A stretch of DNA of 64,000 bases from Elusimicrobiota bacterium (GTDB lineage Bacteria; Elusimicrobiota; Elusimicrobia; UBA1565; UBA9628). Below are positions 21,405-34,897 of the stretch, piece by piece. The position numbers and the translations under genes were made by a program. The DNA is taken from contig CP096137.1 of NCBI GenBank assembly GCA_023213235.1, positions 1,313,587 to 1,377,586 on the forward strand, read 5' to 3'. The notes below the pieces were generated by a model that was given only the letters and a program-made list of their open reading frames with translations, was not told the DNA's origin and made no database searches. Position 1 is the stretch's first letter. Every line of letters begins with the position of its first letter.

Positions 21405-23669
21405 ATGACAAAGGACCCGATTTGCGGAATGACGGTGGACGAGGCGACGGCACTTCACGCCGAACACGATGGGGTGAAGGCGTTCTTTTGCAGCGAACAC
21501 TGCCGGAAACAGTTTTTGGCCGGGGCTAAGCCCGCCGCCAAAGCCGAGGCGGTTCGTGGCGCCGTCTACACCTGCCCGATGCACCCCGAGATCGAGCAGG
21601 ATCACCCCGGCGATTGCCCCAAGTGCGGCATGCCGCTCGAACCGAAGACGGCGACGGCGGGCGCCGATGACGCGGCGCTGGCGGAGATGCGCGGCATGAC
21701 AATGCGCCTCTGGATCGGCGCCGGGCTGACCTTGCCCGTATTCCTGCTGGCGATGGCCCATTTGATCCCGGGCTTGTCCTGGGCGAACGGCCACGCCTCG
21801 CGCTGGACGCAATTCGCGCTCGCCACGCCCGTCGTCTGGTGGGCGGGTTGGCCGTTCTTCCGCCGCGGCTGGAGCTCCCTCGTGACGCGGCAATTGAACA
21901 TGTTCACGTTGATCGCCATCGGCGTGGGCGCGGCCTACGTCTTCAGCGCCGCGGCCATGCTGATGCCCGGTCTATTCCCGCACGCGATGCGGCACGAGGG
22001 CATGGTCGCCGTCTACTTCGAGGCCGCGGCGGTGATCGTCGTGCTGGTCCTCCTCGGCCAGGTGCTGGAACTTCGCGCCCGCAGCCGTACCGGCAGCGCC
22101 ATCAAGGCGCTGCTCAATCTCGCTCCGCCCACGGCGCGGCAGGTCGCGCCGGGCGGTGATCATGAGGTCCCGCTCGATCAGGTGAAAGTCGGCGACCGGC
22201 TGCGGGTGGTTCCCGGCGACAAGGTGCCCGTCGACGGCGCGGTCGTCGAAGGCCGCTCGAGCGTGGATGAGGCCATGCTCACCGGGGAATCGCTCCCGGT
22301 GGAAAAGGCCGTCGGCGACAAGGTGACCGGCGGAACCGTCAACGGCCCCGGCAGCTTCGTCATGCGCGCCGAGCGCGTCGGCAGCGATACCCTGCTCGGG
22401 CAGATCGTGAACATGGTGGCCGAAGCCCAGCGCAGCCGCGCGCCCATTCAGGGCCTCGCCGACAAGATCGCGGGCATCTTCGTGCCGGCGGTGCTGGCGG
22501 TTTCGGCGCTCAGCTTCATCCTATGGCTGCGGCTCGGGCCCGAGCCGAGGCTCGCGCACGCCGTCGTCAACGCGGTCGCGGTCCTCATCATCGCCTGCCC
22601 GTGCGCCCTCGGCCTGGCGACGCCCATGTCCATCATGGTCGGCGTCGGGCACGGCGCGCAGGAAGGCGTGCTCGTGAAAAACGCGGAGGCGCTCGAACGC
22701 CTGGAGAAAGTCACCACGCTCGTCGTGGACAAGACGGGGACGCTCACGGAGGGCAAGCCCAAGCTCATGGACGTCCTGCCCGCAGCCGGCATCGACCCGA
22801 AGGAGTTCCTGCGGCTCGCCGCGTCACTCGAGCAGAGCAGCGAGCACCCGCTCGCCGCCGCGATCGTGCGGGGCGCGAAGGAGCAGGGCCTCGCGCTCGA
22901 GGCCGTGAAAGACTTTCGTTCGGTGACGGCGGGCGGCGTGGTCGGCGCCATCGGCGGCCGCGTGGTGATGATCGGCAAGCCGGATTTCCTGCGAAACGAG
23001 AAAATCGCCGGTTTGGAGCCGTTTGAAACGTCGGCTGTGAAGCTTCAGGAAGAAGGCAAGACCGCGATGTTCGTCGCCATCGACGGCAAGCCGGCCGGTA
23101 TTCTCGCCGTCGCCGACCCGATCAAATCCACCACCCCCGAGGCCATCCGCGAGCTTCACGCGCTTGGACTGAAGCTCATCATGCTGACCGGCGACAACCG
23201 CCGCACCGCCGCCGCGGTGGCCAAGTCGCTCGGCCTTGACGCCGTGGAGGCGGAGATCGAACCGGCCGGGAAGGTCGCCTACGTCAAGAAACTGCGCGCG
23301 GAAGGCCGGCATGTCGCGATGGCCGGCGATGGGATCAACGACGCGCCCGCCCTCAGCGAAGCGGAGGTCGGCATCGCCATGGGCACCGGCACCGACGTGG
23401 CCATGCAAAGCGCGGGCATCACCCTCGTCAAGGGCGACCTCCGAGGCATCGCCAAGGCCATCCGCCTCAGCCGCGCCACCATGCGAAACATCCGTCAGAA
23501 CCTGTTCTTTGCCTTTCTCTACAACGCGCTCGGCATTCCGGTGGCCGCGGGGGCGCTGTATCCTTTCTTCGGCTTGCTTCTCAGCCCGATCATCGCCGGC
23601 GCGGCGATGAGCCTGAGCTCCGTCTCGGTCATCGGCAACGCCTTGCGGCTTCGGACGGTGAAGCTGTGA
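21405..23669 (+). CDS. copA: Copper-translocating P1B-ATPase with YHS and HMBD N-terminal domains
   Basis: 754 residues and intact. Domains: YHS ([15 protein letters not shown]...[12 protein letters not shown], ~2-42), heavy-metal-binding HMBD ([20 protein letters not shown], ~53-75), six to eight membrane helices, actuator MLTGESLPV, ion motif [11 protein letters not shown], phosphorylation DKTGTLT, nucleotide SSEHPLA, hinge [10 protein letters not shown]. The CPC motif and C-terminal helices ([33 protein letters not shown]) mark a Cu+ exporter. It is the only copper ATPase in the window that is not disrupted. The stop overlaps the phosphoketolase start (GTGA). Confidence 0.95.
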
Positions 23670-26021
23670 AAACGAAAACTCTCGCGCCGGAGCCGCTGCG
23701 CAAGCTCGATGCCTATTGGCGCGCCGCGAACTATCTGTCGGTCGGCCAGATTTATCTCTTCGACAACCCTCTGCTGAAGGAGCCGCTCAAGCTCGCGCAC
23801 ATCAAGCCGCGTCTGCTCGGCCACTGGGGCACGACGCCGGGATTGAACTTTATCTATGCCCATCTGAATCGCGTCATCACGGAACACGACCTGAACGTTC
23901 TCAACATCACCGGGCCGGGCCACGGAGGGCCGGGGCTGGTCGCGAACGCCTACCTAGAAGGCGTCTACAGCGAGGTTTATCCGGCCATCTCGCAGGACGA
24001 GGCTGGGATGAAGCGTCTGTTCAAGCAGTTCTCCTTTCCCGGGGAATACCGAGTCACGTCGCGCCCGAGACGCCGGGTTCGATCCACGAGGGCGGGGAGC
24101 TGGGTTATTCGCTGTCGCACGCTTTCGGCGCGGCGTTCGACAACCCGGACCTCCTCGTCGCGTGCGTCGTCGGCGACGGCGAAGCCGAGACCGGCCCGCT
24201 CGCCGCCAGCTGGCACTCGAACAAGTTTCTCAATCCGGTCCACGACGGGGCCGTGCTGCCCATCCTGCATCTAAACGGTTACAAGATCGCGGGCCCGACC
24301 GTGCTGGCGCGCATTCCGCGCGCCGAGCTCGAAGCACTCTTCCGCGGCTGCGGCTACAAGCCGTATTTCGTCGAGGGCGACGACCCTGTCAGGATGCACC
24401 GGCTCATGGCCGCCGCGCTCGACGCGGCCGTGGCCGACATCGGGCGCATCCAACGCGGCGCCCGCGCCAAGGGTTTCAAAATACGTCCGCGCTGGCCCAT
24501 GATCATCTTGCGGTCGCCGAAGGGTTGGACCGGTCCGAAGAGCGTGGACGGCAAACCCGCCGAAGGCACGTTCCGCTCGCATCAGGTGCCGATGGGCGAC
24601 ATGAGCCGTCCGGGGCATGTGAAGATTCTGGAGAAGTGGATGAAGAGTTATCGTCCGCGGGAGCTGTTCGATGAAGTCGGCAAGCTGCGTCCTGAAATCG
24701 CGGAACTTGCCCCGAAAGGCGAGCGCCGCATGAGCGCCAATCCGCACGCGAACGGCGGCGTCCTGCTGCGGGACCTGAGCCTGCCGGATTTCCGCGACTA
24801 CGCGGTGCCTGTGCCGAAGCCCGGCGCCGTAAACGGCGAAGCCACCCGCGTCCAAGGCGAGTTCATCCGCGACGTGATAAGACTCAATCCCGGCAATTTC
24901 CGCGTCTTCAGCCCGGACGAAACATCCTCGAACCGCTGGGGCGCGGTATTCGAGGCGACGAGCCGCTGCTCGACGGCGGAGATTATTCCCCAGGACGACC
25001 GCGTCGCGCCCGACGGCCGGGTGATGGAGATGCTGAGCGAGCATCAGTGCGAGGGCTGGCTCGAAGGCTACCTGCTCACCGGCCGTCATGGCTTCTTTTC
25101 CTGCTATGAGGCGTTCATTCACATCGTGGATTCGATGTTCAATCAGCACGCCAAGTGGCTCAAGACGGCAAATCATATCCCGTGGCGGCGGCCGATCGCC
25201 TCGCTGAACTACCTGCTCTCTTCGCACGTCTGGAGGCAGGACCATAACGGCATCAGCCATCAGGACCCGGGTTTCATCGACCATGTCGTCAATAAGAAGG
25301 CGGAGGTCGATTCGCGTCTACCTGCCGCCCGACGTCAACACTTTGCTCTCGGTCACGGACCACTGCCTGCGCAGCCGGAACTACGTCAACGTGATCGTCG
25401 CGGGCAAACAGCCGAGCGCCGCAGTGGCTGCCGATGGACGCCGCGATCGCGCACTGCGCGGCCGGCATCGGCGTCTGGGACTGGGCGAGCAATGATCACG
25501 GGGCGGAGCCGGATGTCGTGATGGCCTGCGCGGGGGACGTTCCTACTCTCGAGACCTTGGCCGCGGTGAGCATATTGAGGCGGCAGCTTCCGAAGCTGAA
25601 AATCCGGGTGATCAATATCGTGGATCTCATGACGCTGCAGTCGCAGCGCGAGCATCCGCACGGCTTGAGCGACCAGGAATTCGACGCCATCTTCACCCGG
25701 GACAAGCCGATCATCTTCGCCTATCACGGCTACCCGTGGCTCATTCATCGGCTGACCTACCGCCGGACGAACCACGGGAACCTGCATGTGCGCGGCTACA
25801 AGGAGGAAGGCACGACGACCACGCCGTTCGACATGACGGTGATGAACGATCTCGACCGCTTCCATCTGGTGGCCGACGTCGTCAATCGCCTGCCGCAGCT
25901 CGGCGCCGAGGCGGCCCGCGTCGAGCAGGCGATGCGCGCCAAGTTGCTCGAGCACTTTCACTATGTTCGCCGGCACGGGGAAGACCTGCCGGAAATCCAG
26001 AACTGGAAATGGACGGCATGA
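23666..26021 (+). CDS. xfp: Xylulose-5-phosphate/fructose-6-phosphate phosphoketolase (frame broken at three places)
   Basis: Thiamine-diphosphate enzyme with N-terminal motifs [44 protein letters not shown], the ThDP/metal site [14 protein letters not shown], and LNGYKI. The C-terminal part has [48 protein letters not shown] and [17 protein letters not shown]. Frame changes near 24047 (G-run), 25305 and 25425 split it; the sum is ~785 residues as expected. It cleaves xylulose 5-phosphate or fructose 6-phosphate to acetyl phosphate. It would draw on the pentose phosphates made by the gnd-zwf operon. It starts with GTG inside the copper ATPase stop. Confidence 0.92.
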
Positions 26022-26022
26022 G

Positions 26023-26508
26023 ATGGGACTTCTGACCGCGCTGTGGCGCGCGACCTGGCGTGTGCGGGCCGCCGCGGAGGCGCGGCGCCCGGAGGGGCAG
26101 GCGTTCCCGGACTTCACGCTCCGGGACACCACAGGCAGGCCGCACGCCCTGTCTTCCGGCGGGCCGACAGTCCTGTGGTTCACAAACCTCTGCGAGGACT
26201 GCCGGAGCCGCGCGCCGCTGCTGGGCGAGATGGTGGACGCCGGCCTGCGCGTACTCGCCGTGAGCATCCTGACGCCGGACGATCCCTTGCCGCTGGAGTA
26301 CGGCGAGACCGCCCCTTTCCCGGTCCTCCTCGACCCCGAGGACGTCGTCGGGCGGCAGTTGGGCCTGGAGCATCCGCTGGGGACCTGCCCGCTGCACAAC
26401 CTCTACATCCTCGACCGTGGCCGGCACGTGTTATTCCGCCACCATCTCTCGGCCGTCGATCCGCAGACGCTCCGTCGCGTCTGGCGCGACCTGCTGGAGG
26501 AACGATGA
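26023..26508 (+). CDS. Thioredoxin-fold redoxin with CxxC
   Basis: The start at 26023, two bases after the phosphoketolase stop, gives ~161 residues. The fold resembles AhpC/TSA-Redoxin: GQAFPDFTLRDTTGRPHAL, TVLWFTNLCEDCRSRAPLL with the CEDC active-site pair, then FPVLLDPEDVVGRQLGL and LYILDRGRHVLFRHH. No signal peptide, so cytoplasmic. It may reduce peroxide or disulfides; the substrate is unknown. It is likely the third gene of the copper ATPase-phosphoketolase operon. Confidence 0.72.
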   Translation: MGLLTALWRATWRVRAAAEARRPEGQAFPDFTLRDTTGRPHALSSGGPTVLWFTNLCEDCRSRAPLLGEMVDAGLRVLAVSILTPDDPLPLEYGETAPFPVLLDPEDVVGRQLGLEHPLGTCPLHNLYILDRGRHVLFRHHLSAVDPQTLRRVWRDLLEER

Positions 26509-26640: not shown

Positions 26641-26672
26641 TTGACTCTATATCATGGTATAGAGTCTATGCT
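26641..26672 (+). promoter_or_regulatory. MerR-type promoter/operator
   Basis: TTGACT (-35, 26641-26646) and TATGCT (-10, 26667-26672) are separated by 20 bases. The spacer holds a perfect dyad, GACTCTATA (26643-26651) and TATAGAGTC (26658-26666). Over-long spacers with a central dyad are the hallmark of promoters activated by MerR-family regulators. It lies 22 bases upstream of merR and reads in the same direction, so merR autoregulates the whole mer run. Confidence 0.9.
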
Positions 26673-26694
26673 TTAACAAGGGGATGGGGAATGC

Positions 26695-27129
26695 ATGTCA
26701 GAGCATTATATTCAGATAGGAGCTGTCGCCAAACGGGCTCGGGTTAACATCCAGACGATCCGCTATTACGAGCGCCGGGGCCTGGTGTCTCCCGAGGACC
26801 ATCGGGAGTCGGGCTATCGCCTGTACTCGGGCGAGGCGGTCAAGAAAATACGATTCATCAAGAACGCCCAAGAGTTGGGCTTTACGCTCGGCGAGATCCT
26901 GGGCTTGCTCAAGCTCCAAGTCAGCCATAGGTCCAAATGCGGCGAAGTCAAACGGAAGGCGGAAGGGAAGCTCAACGACGTGCGCTCTAGGATCGATTCT
27001 CTCAAGGCCATCGAGAAAGCGCTGATTGAGTTGGTCGATACTTGCCGCTCCCGAGCGGCAACGGACTCTTGCCCGATTCTCAAGAGCCTGGAGATCGGCA
27101 TAACGGCGAAACGGAGGAGGCGAGCATGA
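26695..27129 (+). CDS. merR: Mercury-responsive regulator MerR
   Basis: 144 residues with an N-terminal winged helix (IGAVAKRARVNIQTIRYYERRGL, GYRLYSGEAVKKIRFIKNAQELGF) and a dimerisation helix. Cysteines stand at residues 82, 117 and 126, exactly the three Hg(II) ligands of Tn501/Tn21 MerR, which separates it from CueR, ZntR or CadR. It should repress and, on Hg(II), activate the promoter just upstream. Its stop overlaps the merTP start. Unlike Tn21 MerR it is transcribed with, not away from, the structural genes. Confidence 0.93.
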   Translation: MSEHYIQIGAVAKRARVNIQTIRYYERRGLVSPEDHRESGYRLYSGEAVKKIRFIKNAQELGFTLGEILGLLKLQVSHRSKCGEVKRKAEGKLNDVRSRIDSLKAIEKALIELVDTCRSRAATDSCPILKSLEIGITAKRRRRA

Positions 27130-27719
27130 AAGACAGGATCGCAGCAGCCGCGGCCGTGGTCTCCGCAGCGTTGGCGTCGGTCTGCTGCATCGGGCCCGTC
27201 GTCCTGGCCGCGCTCGGACTGGGCGGCGTCGGCTTGGCGGCGGGATTTGAGAAATATCGCCCTTATTTCCTGCTCGCCACGGCGATACTTCTGGGCATAG
27301 GCTTCTTCCAAGCTTATCGGCATCGCGATGAGTCTTGCTCCGGCGGCGATTGCAAGACGGGGGCGTCGAGCCATTCGAGGAGGCGCGCGTTGTGGATCAT
27401 CGCGGCCGTGGCCCTCGGAGTCGCGTCGTTCCCATCGTGGGCGCCGCTTCTTCTGCGCCATTCGCCGCGTCCGGCCGCCGCGGACGCGAAGACGATCAAG
27501 CTGACCGTCTCGGGCATGGACTGCGCGGCTTGCGCCGCAGGAATCGAGAAGTCGCTCAAGAAGGTCCCGGGCGTTCAGGACGCCTCGGTCGACTTCGACA
27601 AGGGCGAGGCGACGGTTTACGCCGACCGCGGCCGCGTTTCCGCTTCAGACCTGCTACACGCCGTCCAATCGGCCGGACCGTACTCGGCGCGGCTTGAGGA
27701 GAACCGTCATGTCCAATGA
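27126..27719 (+). CDS. merT: MerT-MerP fusion, mercuric transport protein
   Basis: ATG at 27126 overlaps the merR stop. MerT-like part: helix 1 with the vicinal cysteines VCCIGPVVLAALGLGG, helix 2 (YFLLATAILLGIGFFQAYRH), a loop with CSGGDCK, and helix 3 (LWIIAAVALGVASFPSWAPL). From residue ~120 a MerP/HMA domain follows: KLTVSGMDCAACAAGIEKSL with the metal-binding CxxC. About 197 residues, matching known MerTP fusions. It moves Hg(II) across the inner membrane. No mercuric reductase gene is present in the window. Confidence 0.9.
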   Translation: MKDRIAAAAAVVSAALASVCCIGPVVLAALGLGGVGLAAGFEKYRPYFLLATAILLGIGFFQAYRHRDESCSGGDCKTGASSHSRRRALWIIAAVALGVASFPSWAPLLLRHSPRPAAADAKTIKLTVSGMDCAACAAGIEKSLKKVPGVQDASVDFDKGEATVYADRGRVSASDLLHAVQSAGPYSARLEENRHVQ

Positions 27720-28179
27720 CGAGGCGCAGCCCCGCCGTCCACCCAAGTCGACGGCTTGCCGCTGCCCGGTCTGCGGCGACGCGGGCCGTCTCGTGAGCGC
27801 GCTCACGCTCGCGAATCACCTGCCGAGCGAGATTTATGCCCAGTCCGGAGGACAGGGCAGCTTCTGCGCCAATCCGAACTGCGCCGTGGTCTACTGCAAT
27901 TCCAGGGGGATGCTCATCCGGCGCGGCGATACCGTGCTGCCCGTCACGATCAAGGACGCCGGCGACGACGTCCATGTCTGCTACTGCTTCGATTTTAAAC
28001 GCGCCGATATTCGTCGCGAGATCCTTGAAAAGGGCAAGACGACGATCCCGGAGGAGATCAAGAAAGGCATCAAGGCCGGCCGCTGCGACTGCGAACGAAA
28101 GAATCCCCAAGGGGTCTGCTGCCTTGGCAACGTCGCCGCGGCTGTAAAAGTCATTCTGGCCGAGGTCAACCGCAAATGA
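27709..28179 (+). CDS. CopZ-like zinc/[2Fe-2S] metallochaperone-type protein
   Basis: Start at 27709, inside the end of merTP, after GAGGAGAA. The N-terminal zinc-ribbon-like module has CRCPVCG and GSFCANPNCAVVYCNS. The C-terminal half is BFD-like with CYCFDFKRADIRREI and CDCERKNPQGVCCLGNV, four cysteines in the arrangement expected for a [2Fe-2S] cluster. This matches the N-terminal region of Archaeoglobus CopZ; the HMA domain of that protein is missing. In mer operons such proteins may handle Hg(II) or supply thiols; the role here is inferred. 156 residues. Confidence 0.82.
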   Translation: MSNDEAQPRRPPKSTACRCPVCGDAGRLVSALTLANHLPSEIYAQSGGQGSFCANPNCAVVYCNSRGMLIRRGDTVLPVTIKDAGDDVHVCYCFDFKRADIRREILEKGKTTIPEEIKKGIKAGRCDCERKNPQGVCCLGNVAAAVKVILAEVNRK

Positions 28180-28194
28180 GCGCTGCGAATGCTA

Positions 28195-28214
28195 ATATCT
28201 GCCTAGGCAGATAT
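28195..28214 (+). promoter_or_regulatory. ArsR operator, perfect 20-bp palindrome over the arsR start
   Basis: ATATCTGCCTAGGCAGATAT is perfectly self-complementary. Its last two bases are the first two of the arsR ATG at 28213. A related imperfect copy lies before arsC at 28560. No Shine-Dalgarno sequence precedes arsR, so this mRNA may be leaderless or the gene may be read from upstream. Confidence 0.85.

Positions 28215-31434: not shown

Positions 31435-34897
<3,463 letters not shown>

What the first reader, a model, noticed from the sequence alone, without database searches (positions are those of the whole stretch)
26641..28179. Mercury module with MerR, a MerT-MerP fusion and a CopZ-like protein but no MerA
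MerR has the three Hg ligands at canonical positions, and its dyad promoter with a 20-base spacer is intact. Yet importer genes without mercuric reductase would raise internal Hg(II). Either merA lies elsewhere, or the Cys-rich CopZ-like protein and cytosolic thiols sequester mercury, or the pump is used for export.
Basis: partly seen in the sequence, partly recalled or inferred. Interest (0 to 1): 0.5.

Follow-up and report, generated by a model that had tools for sequence, protein, structure and literature searches.

The report
Mercury operon with CopZ replacing MerA
This bacterium carries a mercury-type operon in which the usual mercury-reducing enzyme is missing and a small protein of an iron-sulfur type sits in its place; the same swap recurs in related and unrelated microbes, which suggests a second, untested way of dealing with mercury inside cells.

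Summary
Confirmed: window 26641-28179 is one operon: MerR-type promoter, merR (Cys82/117/126), merTP and a CopZ-type gene, with no MerA over the curated cut-off in the 3.80 Mb assembly. The operator occurs at two places in the genome, both before merR-merTP-copZ operons. The 'CopZ' matches the Zn/[2Fe-2S] N-terminal domain of Archaeoglobus CopZ (2HU9), not an HMA chaperone. In the phylum (Elusimicrobiota), 35 MerT places in 340 genomes divide into 23 with copZ only, 6 with merA only, 2 with both, 2 cut off by contig ends, 2 with neither; the promoter type is shared. MerA over cut-off: 8 of 340, each beside merTP. Elsewhere copZ follows Hg-type MerR without MerT, is fused to MerT-HMA, or precedes merB. 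Best reading: a MerA-less mer operon whose Fe-S-type protein takes Hg(II) from MerTP and disarms it, by reduction or thiol trapping. The operon family is well supported; the chemistry is inferred and untested. Against: relatives of this CopZ also sit beside P-type ATPases or ars genes, two operons keep both merA and copZ, and the assemblies are incomplete.

The parts
26641..26672 (+). MerR-type promoter/operator: TTGACT, 20-base spacer with dyad, TATGCT
   Evidence: same form before 28 of 32 merR genes examined in the phylum
26695..27129 (+). merR, Hg-type regulator (Cys82, Cys117, Cys126)
   Evidence: TIGR02051 129.1 bits, under the cut-off of 150.85
27126..27719 (+). merTP: MerT membrane part fused to a C-terminal HMA (MerP-like) domain; Cys20-21, Cys71/76, Cys133/136 invariant in 19 of 19 aligned
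27709..28179 (+). copZ-type gene: zf_CopZ plus [2Fe-2S] type domain, no HMA domain; occupies the place of merA

Best explanation
It is a mercury-type operon in which a CopZ-type Zn/[2Fe-2S] protein stands in the place of mercuric reductase. Shown by sequence: promoter, Hg-type MerR, MerTP with its three cysteine pairs, the CopZ-N fold with conserved cysteines, absence of MerA from the assembly, and recurrence of the swap. Inferred: Hg(II) binds MerR and switches the promoter on; the HMA domain of MerTP catches Hg(II) outside the membrane; it passes the Cys20-21 pair to the Cys71/Cys76 loop on the inner side; the CopZ-type protein takes it by thiol exchange and disarms it. For the last step I hold two options about equally likely: reduction to volatile Hg(0) through the [2Fe-2S] cluster, or tight thiol binding with hand-over. 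Either way import makes sense as in classical mer operons, because the operon brings its own acceptor.
For: Same slot: 23 places with copZ only, 6 with merA only, 2 with merA then copZ, of 35. Same promoter type before both kinds: 28 of 32, all 8 merA operons among them. MerA over cut-off in 8 of 340 genomes, each beside merTP; none in the 19 copZ-only genomes. copZ over cut-off in 22 of 340 genomes, 20 of them with MerT (Fisher p 6.6e-23, related genomes not independent). Operator at only two places in this genome, both copZ operons. copZ directly behind Hg-type merR without merT: G221, G002, two Caldilineaceae, plasmids of Cytobacillus (3), Cohnella, Peribacillus, Stenotrophomonas (2). copZ-merT-HMA in one reading frame: L114, L118, L126, L180. 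copZ followed by an annotated merB in two Deinococcus plasmids. Fold match to 2HU9. A review reports that the Fe-S domain of A. fulgidus CopZ mediates Cu(II) reduction (PMC7558416, passage).
Against: No experiment. MerR and MerTP are under the curated NCBIfam cut-offs. The wider CopZ-N family is not mercury-specific: P-type ATPase directly upstream on Enterococcus and Paenibacillus plasmids, ArsR-copZ-ArsC in two in-phylum genomes (L155, L156), no MerR or MerT near six other weaker in-phylum members examined, and 20 of 57 out-of-phylum loci with neither MerR nor MerT near. Two operons keep merA and copZ together, and Halorussus has both near each other, so copZ is not simply an alternative. 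The N-terminal Cys-Cys pair of most relatives is missing in the window protein. Deinococcus and cyanobacterial regulators lack the Hg-type spacing. The Deinococcus merB tested is short and under its model cut-offs (72.3 against 193). Assemblies are incomplete (own genome 83.6%).
Confidence: 0.6

Rival explanations
1. CopZ is only a chaperone or buffer. It takes Hg(II) from MerTP and passes it to small thiols or to a MerA-like FAD oxidoreductase (NF004991 type) encoded elsewhere, which does the reduction.
For: NF004991 over cut-off in 28 of 340 genomes, 14 of them with MerT (p 1.2e-9); in 12 of the 19 copZ-only genomes, in 9 of these on the same contig within about 18 kb of merT. A MerA-like protein (398 bits, under cut-off) directly follows copZ in two Halorussus plasmids and lies about 3 kb from merR-copZ-merB in D. 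wulumuqiensis.
Against: Absent from this genome at E 1e-200 and from 6 others of the 19 copZ-only genomes as a full-length match. copZ stands alone with merR in several places.
Confidence: 0.25
2. The operon exports mercury or another soft metal: CopZ collects it in the cytosol and hands it to MerT running outward.
For: CopZ hands Cu(I) to the exporter CopA in Archaeoglobus (PMC5552934, passage); CopZ-N genes directly follow P-type ATPases on two plasmids.
Against: MerT keeps the cysteine pairs of importers; no energy source for export is visible; merA takes the same slot behind the same merTP in 6 operons and MerA works on imported Hg(II); copZ occurs without merT.
Confidence: 0.08
3. The operon answers to another soft metal, such as Cu(I), Ag(I), Cd(II) or Pb(II), and not to mercury.
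For: MerR is under the TIGR02051 cut-off; the best-studied CopZ handles copper.
Against: Cys82/117/126 spacing; MerR model scores best; the same promoter type drives merA operons in the phylum; the Cytobacillus regulator next to copZ is close to PDB 4UA1 (249 bits), recalled as a mercury-bound MerR.
Confidence: 0.08
4. The importer feeds mercury methylation by HgcAB.
For: An importer without a reductase.
Against: No HgcA match in the genome by family NF040863 (control rang in two methanogens, below cut-off) or by a cap-helix DNA pattern.
Confidence: 0.01

Closest known systems
Classical mer operon (merR, merT, merP, merA)
   Same: MerR-type promoter with 20-base spacer (classical spacing 19-20, recalled), Hg-type MerR, MerT plus MerP-like domain, single transcript
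   Different: No merA; a CopZ-N gene in its place. One paper says all mer operons encode MerA (PMC6445937, passage); a survey of 272 mer operons, found through merA, lists no CopZ (PMC3466566, passages)
Archaeoglobus fulgidus CopZ, N-terminal domain (PDB 2HU9)
   Same: Fold (Foldseek E 9.4e-9, TM 0.67/0.80) and cysteine pattern
   Different: No C-terminal HMA copper-binding domain; sits in a mercury-type operon beside MerTP instead of with a copper ATPase
NF047645 CopZ_Nterm_CC, putative iron-sulfur cluster-binding metallochaperone
   Same: Passes the curated cut-off (110.2 against 100)
   Different: The family name claims no metal and no role; its link to merR and merT is what is added here
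(2Fe-2S)-binding selenoproteins of the CopZ family (Csac_0668 type) and MerT/CopZ fusion-like selenoprotein (NF045683)
   Same: Same domain kinds; listed among predicted selenoproteins (PMC13188914, passages; families)
   Different: Cys instead of Sec here; scores far below those cut-offs (55.7 against 190; 91.7 against 375)
Stand-alone TRASH-domain protein of Sulfolobus mer operons
   Same: Small extra protein proposed for Hg trafficking (PMC3466566, passage)
   Different: Different domain, found in operons with merA, archaeal only in that survey

Membership tests
Classical mer operon | Hg-type MerR with three cysteine ligands | tested here: met
   Cys82/117/126 aligned with 5CRL and 4UA1; but under the TIGR02051 cut-off
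Classical mer operon | MerR promoter with long spacer and dyad | tested here: met
Classical mer operon | MerT and MerP transport parts | tested here: met
   PF02411 and PF00403 over cut-off in one protein; NF033556 under cut-off
Classical mer operon | Mercuric reductase MerA | tested here: not met
   none over cut-off in the held genome
Classical mer operon | Turns Hg(II) into Hg(0) | not testable with these tools
   needs a bench assay
A. fulgidus-type CopZ | N-terminal Zn/[2Fe-2S] domain with its cysteines | tested here: met
   metal content itself not testable here
A. fulgidus-type CopZ | C-terminal HMA copper-binding domain | tested here: not met
   156 residues, no HMA match
NF047645 CopZ_Nterm_CC | score over the curated cut-off | tested here: met
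   110.2 against 100
Mercury methylation (HgcAB) | HgcA in the genome | tested here: not met
Organomercury resistance | MerB in the genome | tested here: inconclusive
   no match, but the search rang in no control genome

The most novel reading that the evidence does not exclude
The CopZ-type [2Fe-2S] protein is a second, MerA-independent mercuric reductase, or an electron relay that turns Hg(II) into Hg(0). It recurs in several phyla, travels as a minimal merR-copZ cassette on plasmids, is fused to its own importer in some bacteria and is followed by merB in others, which would explain part of the known genomes with MerB but no MerA.
Probability: 0.3. Interest if true: 0.85.

Novelty: new variant of a known kind. 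Interest (0 to 1): 0.62.

Why it matters
Mercury-resistant microbes are usually recognised by merA. If merR-copZ and merR-merTP-copZ operons give resistance, a share of mercury-handling microbes is being missed, among them uncultured groundwater bacteria, cyanobacteria, Deinococcus and Bacillota with plasmids. A review of mer genes names genomes with MerB but no MerA as an open problem and considers ferredoxin-driven Hg(II) reduction (PMC8261052, passages). A dedicated protein of an Fe-S type behind Hg-type regulators, and in two Deinococcus plasmids directly before merB, makes that question testable in cultured strains.

Tried and rejected
merA elsewhere: not found in this assembly. HgcA: none. 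MerB: no match, but no control genome rang, so absence is not shown. Another member of the regulon: the operator pattern has only two places.

Literature: ten searches. In their listings I saw no paper that joins this CopZ Fe-S protein with mercury resistance. Listings were capped and only open-licence papers are held, so this is weak evidence of absence. The primary paper on A. fulgidus CopZ is not held; its Cu(II) reduction is taken from a review. Papers were seen as passages (PMC13188914, PMC8261052, PMC7558416, PMC5552934, PMC3466566, PMC6445937) or listings; none was read whole.

Rows dropped or weak: the 'Redoxin' query was cut out of frame and the 'Aqp' query started late and ended in a stop; neither was used. 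In one search the ligand check failed for minus-strand stop-to-stop frames (L091, L092, L094, L095, L096), which I did not resolve, though the L096 tail shown looks Hg-type by eye. L040 and L054 show no 20-base-spacer promoter and were not followed up; L068 has an 18-base spacer; L056 none. Named loci L070-L090, L104 and L137 are of the same phylum and many are the same contigs as those fetched by handle; they were not added to the phylum counts. The number of merA/copZ swaps is unsettled: the MerTP tree forces merA into two places, the MerR tree allows one. Only 8 loci of the weaker in-phylum CopZ hits were looked at (L152-L156, L160-L162), of 34 genomes with hits below the cut-off.

Full report
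What is there. Window 26641-28179 is a compact operon: a MerR-type promoter (TTGACT, 20 bases, TATGCT), merR (26695-27129), merTP (27126-27719) and a copZ-type gene (27709-28179), with overlaps of 4 and 11 bases. A separate ars group follows; the start of its arsR (28213) lies in the palindrome ATATCTGCCTAGGCAGATAT. MerR carries Cys82, Cys117 and Cys126, aligned with the cysteines of solved MerR proteins. Its best model is TIGR02051, though under the cut-off. MerTP has a Cys pair in the first membrane helix, a loop pair and the HMA CxxC pair, invariant in 19 of 19 aligned sequences.

The third gene. It passes NF047645. Sequence, predicted structure (mean pLDDT 93.4) and fold search point to one solved structure, the N-terminal domain of A. 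[quoted passage not shown] In an alignment of 44, eight cysteines (19, 53, 58, 91, 126, 128, 137, 138) are in 44, Cys93 in 43 and Cys22 in 39. By the alignment with 2HU9 I read Cys19/22/53/58 as the zinc site, Cys91/93/128/137 as the cluster site and Cys126/138 as further thiols; this is inference. An N-terminal Cys-Cys pair, present in 18 of 20 phylum members aligned, is missing from the window protein.

No MerA. In the single contig of 3.80 Mb (completeness 83.6%, contamination 2.1%) the best MerA hit is a dihydrolipoyl dehydrogenase. The operator pattern, with up to two mismatches, is found only at this operon and at a second merR-merTP-copZ operon about 100 kb away (G000:C1, operator 1240476, merR from 1240525, copZ to 1241973).

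The phylum. Record titles of the closest named relatives say Elusimicrobia or Elusimicrobiota. MerT was found at 35 places in 30 of 340 genomes; I looked at all 35. copZ without merA: 23 places in 19 genomes. merA without copZ: 6. merA followed by copZ: 2. Cut by a contig end: 2. Neither: 2 (one with an in-frame stop near a contig end, one a weak hit). Of the 23, L050 shows no merR, and L068 has a short MerT without HMA and a different MerR. One of the two cut places (G203) may continue as copZ, since a CopZ end lies at the start of another contig. MerA over its cut-off occurs in 8 of 340 genomes, each beside merTP. The 20-base-spacer promoter precedes 28 of 32 merR genes, the 8 operons with merA included. 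So one kind of switch drives either merA or copZ. copZ passes its cut-off in 22 of 340 genomes, 20 of them with MerT; Fisher p is 6.6e-23, with the caveat that related genomes are not independent. On the MerTP tree the merA operons fall in two places; on the MerR tree they may be one group.

Results against. A further 34 genomes have CopZ hits below the cut-off. Of eight such loci that I looked at, none has MerT or MerR nearby, and two have ArsR-copZ-ArsC (L155, L156). Those proteins are more distant, and several carry a C-terminal extension.

Operons without an importer. In G221 (L150) and G002 (L158) merR is followed directly by copZ under the same promoter form. The same holds in two Caldilineaceae, L130 and L142; the L142 regulator scores 147.1 against the MerR cut-off of 150.85, and its neighbours are an ABC transporter gene and a weak MFS match. 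On plasmids, 25 of 72,556 records match the window protein at E 1e-5. I looked at all 25. Sixteen have a merR-type gene just upstream, in two of them with merF between; one of the sixteen is an unannotated record where I found merR by translation. The other nine: two Alicyclobacillus, two Halorussus, one fusion (below), two behind a P-type ATPase (Enterococcus, Paenibacillus), one Anaerococcus selenoprotein-family member, one without annotation. Of 15 upstream regulators that I read, 7 have the Hg-type cysteine spacing. The Deinococcus and cyanobacterial ones do not; there the mercury link rests on an annotated merB directly downstream (Deinococcus sp. QL22, D. wulumuqiensis) or merF upstream. 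The merB of D. wulumuqiensis is short and under its model cut-offs. MerA over cut-off lies on 3 of the 25 records: Peribacillus and two Halorussus. The Stenotrophomonas regulator passes the MerR cut-off (182.4), but is Bacillus-like, so a wrong host label or a recent transfer is possible. The Cytobacillus regulator is close to PDB 4UA1 (249 bits), which I recall as a mercury-bound MerR.

Fusions. One reading frame holds CopZ, MerT and HMA parts in a Planctomycetota MAG (L118), a Planctomycetes plasmid where it is annotated 'Mercuric reductase' (L180), a Wallbacteria MAG (L114) and a Limisphaerales MAG (L126). This argues that CopZ works directly with MerT.

Wider setting. The scan of named genomes gave 350 relatives; the best 80 were kept. 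Of the 57 outside the phylum, 31 have MerT within 1.5 kb, 28 a MerR within 2.5 kb, 22 both, 20 neither, and 4 a P1B ATPase near; thresholds are mine. The family thus has other jobs too.

How it may work. Shown: genes, promoter, fold, conserved cysteines, recurrence. Inferred: induction by Hg(II), import by MerTP, transfer to CopZ, disarming there. Reduction is plausible because the Fe-S domain of A. fulgidus CopZ is reported to mediate Cu(II) reduction (PMC7558416, passage) and because MerA-independent Hg(II) reduction in anaerobes has been ascribed tentatively to ferredoxins (PMC8261052, passages). Sequestration with hand-over is equally open. A MerA-like FAD oxidoreductase (NF004991) is a candidate partner in 12 of the 19 copZ-only genomes, but not in this one.

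Novelty. In the ten literature searches I saw no report of a mer operon without merA but with this protein; the library holds open-licence papers only. One paper states that all mer operons encode MerA (PMC6445937, passage). I call it a new variant of a known kind.

Noticed in passing
G000:C1:1240476-1241973 (L007 4477-5974), outside the window: A second merR-merTP-copZ operon in the same genome, closer to those of other members of the genus than the window copy is; its CopZ keeps the N-terminal Cys-Cys pair.
   Followed up: partly
L044, L045, L048, L054, L055 and others; G-handles: A MerA-like FAD oxidoreductase (NF004991) is found in 14 of 30 MerT genomes and 14 of 310 others, often within 18 kb of merT; a possible electron partner of CopZ.
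   Followed up: partly
L172 2431-2952, L174 2425-2946: merR-copZ-merB on Deinococcus plasmids without MerA over cut-off on the record; in D. wulumuqiensis a MerA-like protein (398 bits) lies about 3 kb away.
   Followed up: partly
L186 1995-3820, L187 1995-3820: Halorussus plasmids: copZ directly followed by a lipoamide-dehydrogenase-like gene, with merB and a true MerA within a few kb.
   Followed up: partly
L180 3010-4245: Planctomycetes plasmid gene annotated 'Mercuric reductase' is a CopZ-MerT-HMA fusion, with no MerA-family match on that record.
   Followed up: yes
L058 2766-4025, L060 3054-4286: Downstream of some copZ operons lies an NHL-repeat protein with a C-terminal HMA domain.
   Followed up: no
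window 28191-28210: Perfect 20-base palindrome ATATCTGCCTAGGCAGATAT just before arsR, probably its operator; arsR, arsC-like and aquaporin genes follow.
   Followed up: no
window 26023-26508: AhpC/TSA-family redoxin gene (PF00578 39.8 bits) just upstream of the mer promoter.
   Followed up: no
window 23666-26021 and 31435-34339: A phosphoketolase-like gene and a CusA-like RND gene (named by eye) appear split over frames, perhaps sequencing errors or decay.
   Followed up: no
L152, L153, L154, L160, L161, L162: Longer CopZ-N proteins in another family of the phylum carry a C-terminal extension without an HMA match and have no MerR or MerT nearby.
   Followed up: no
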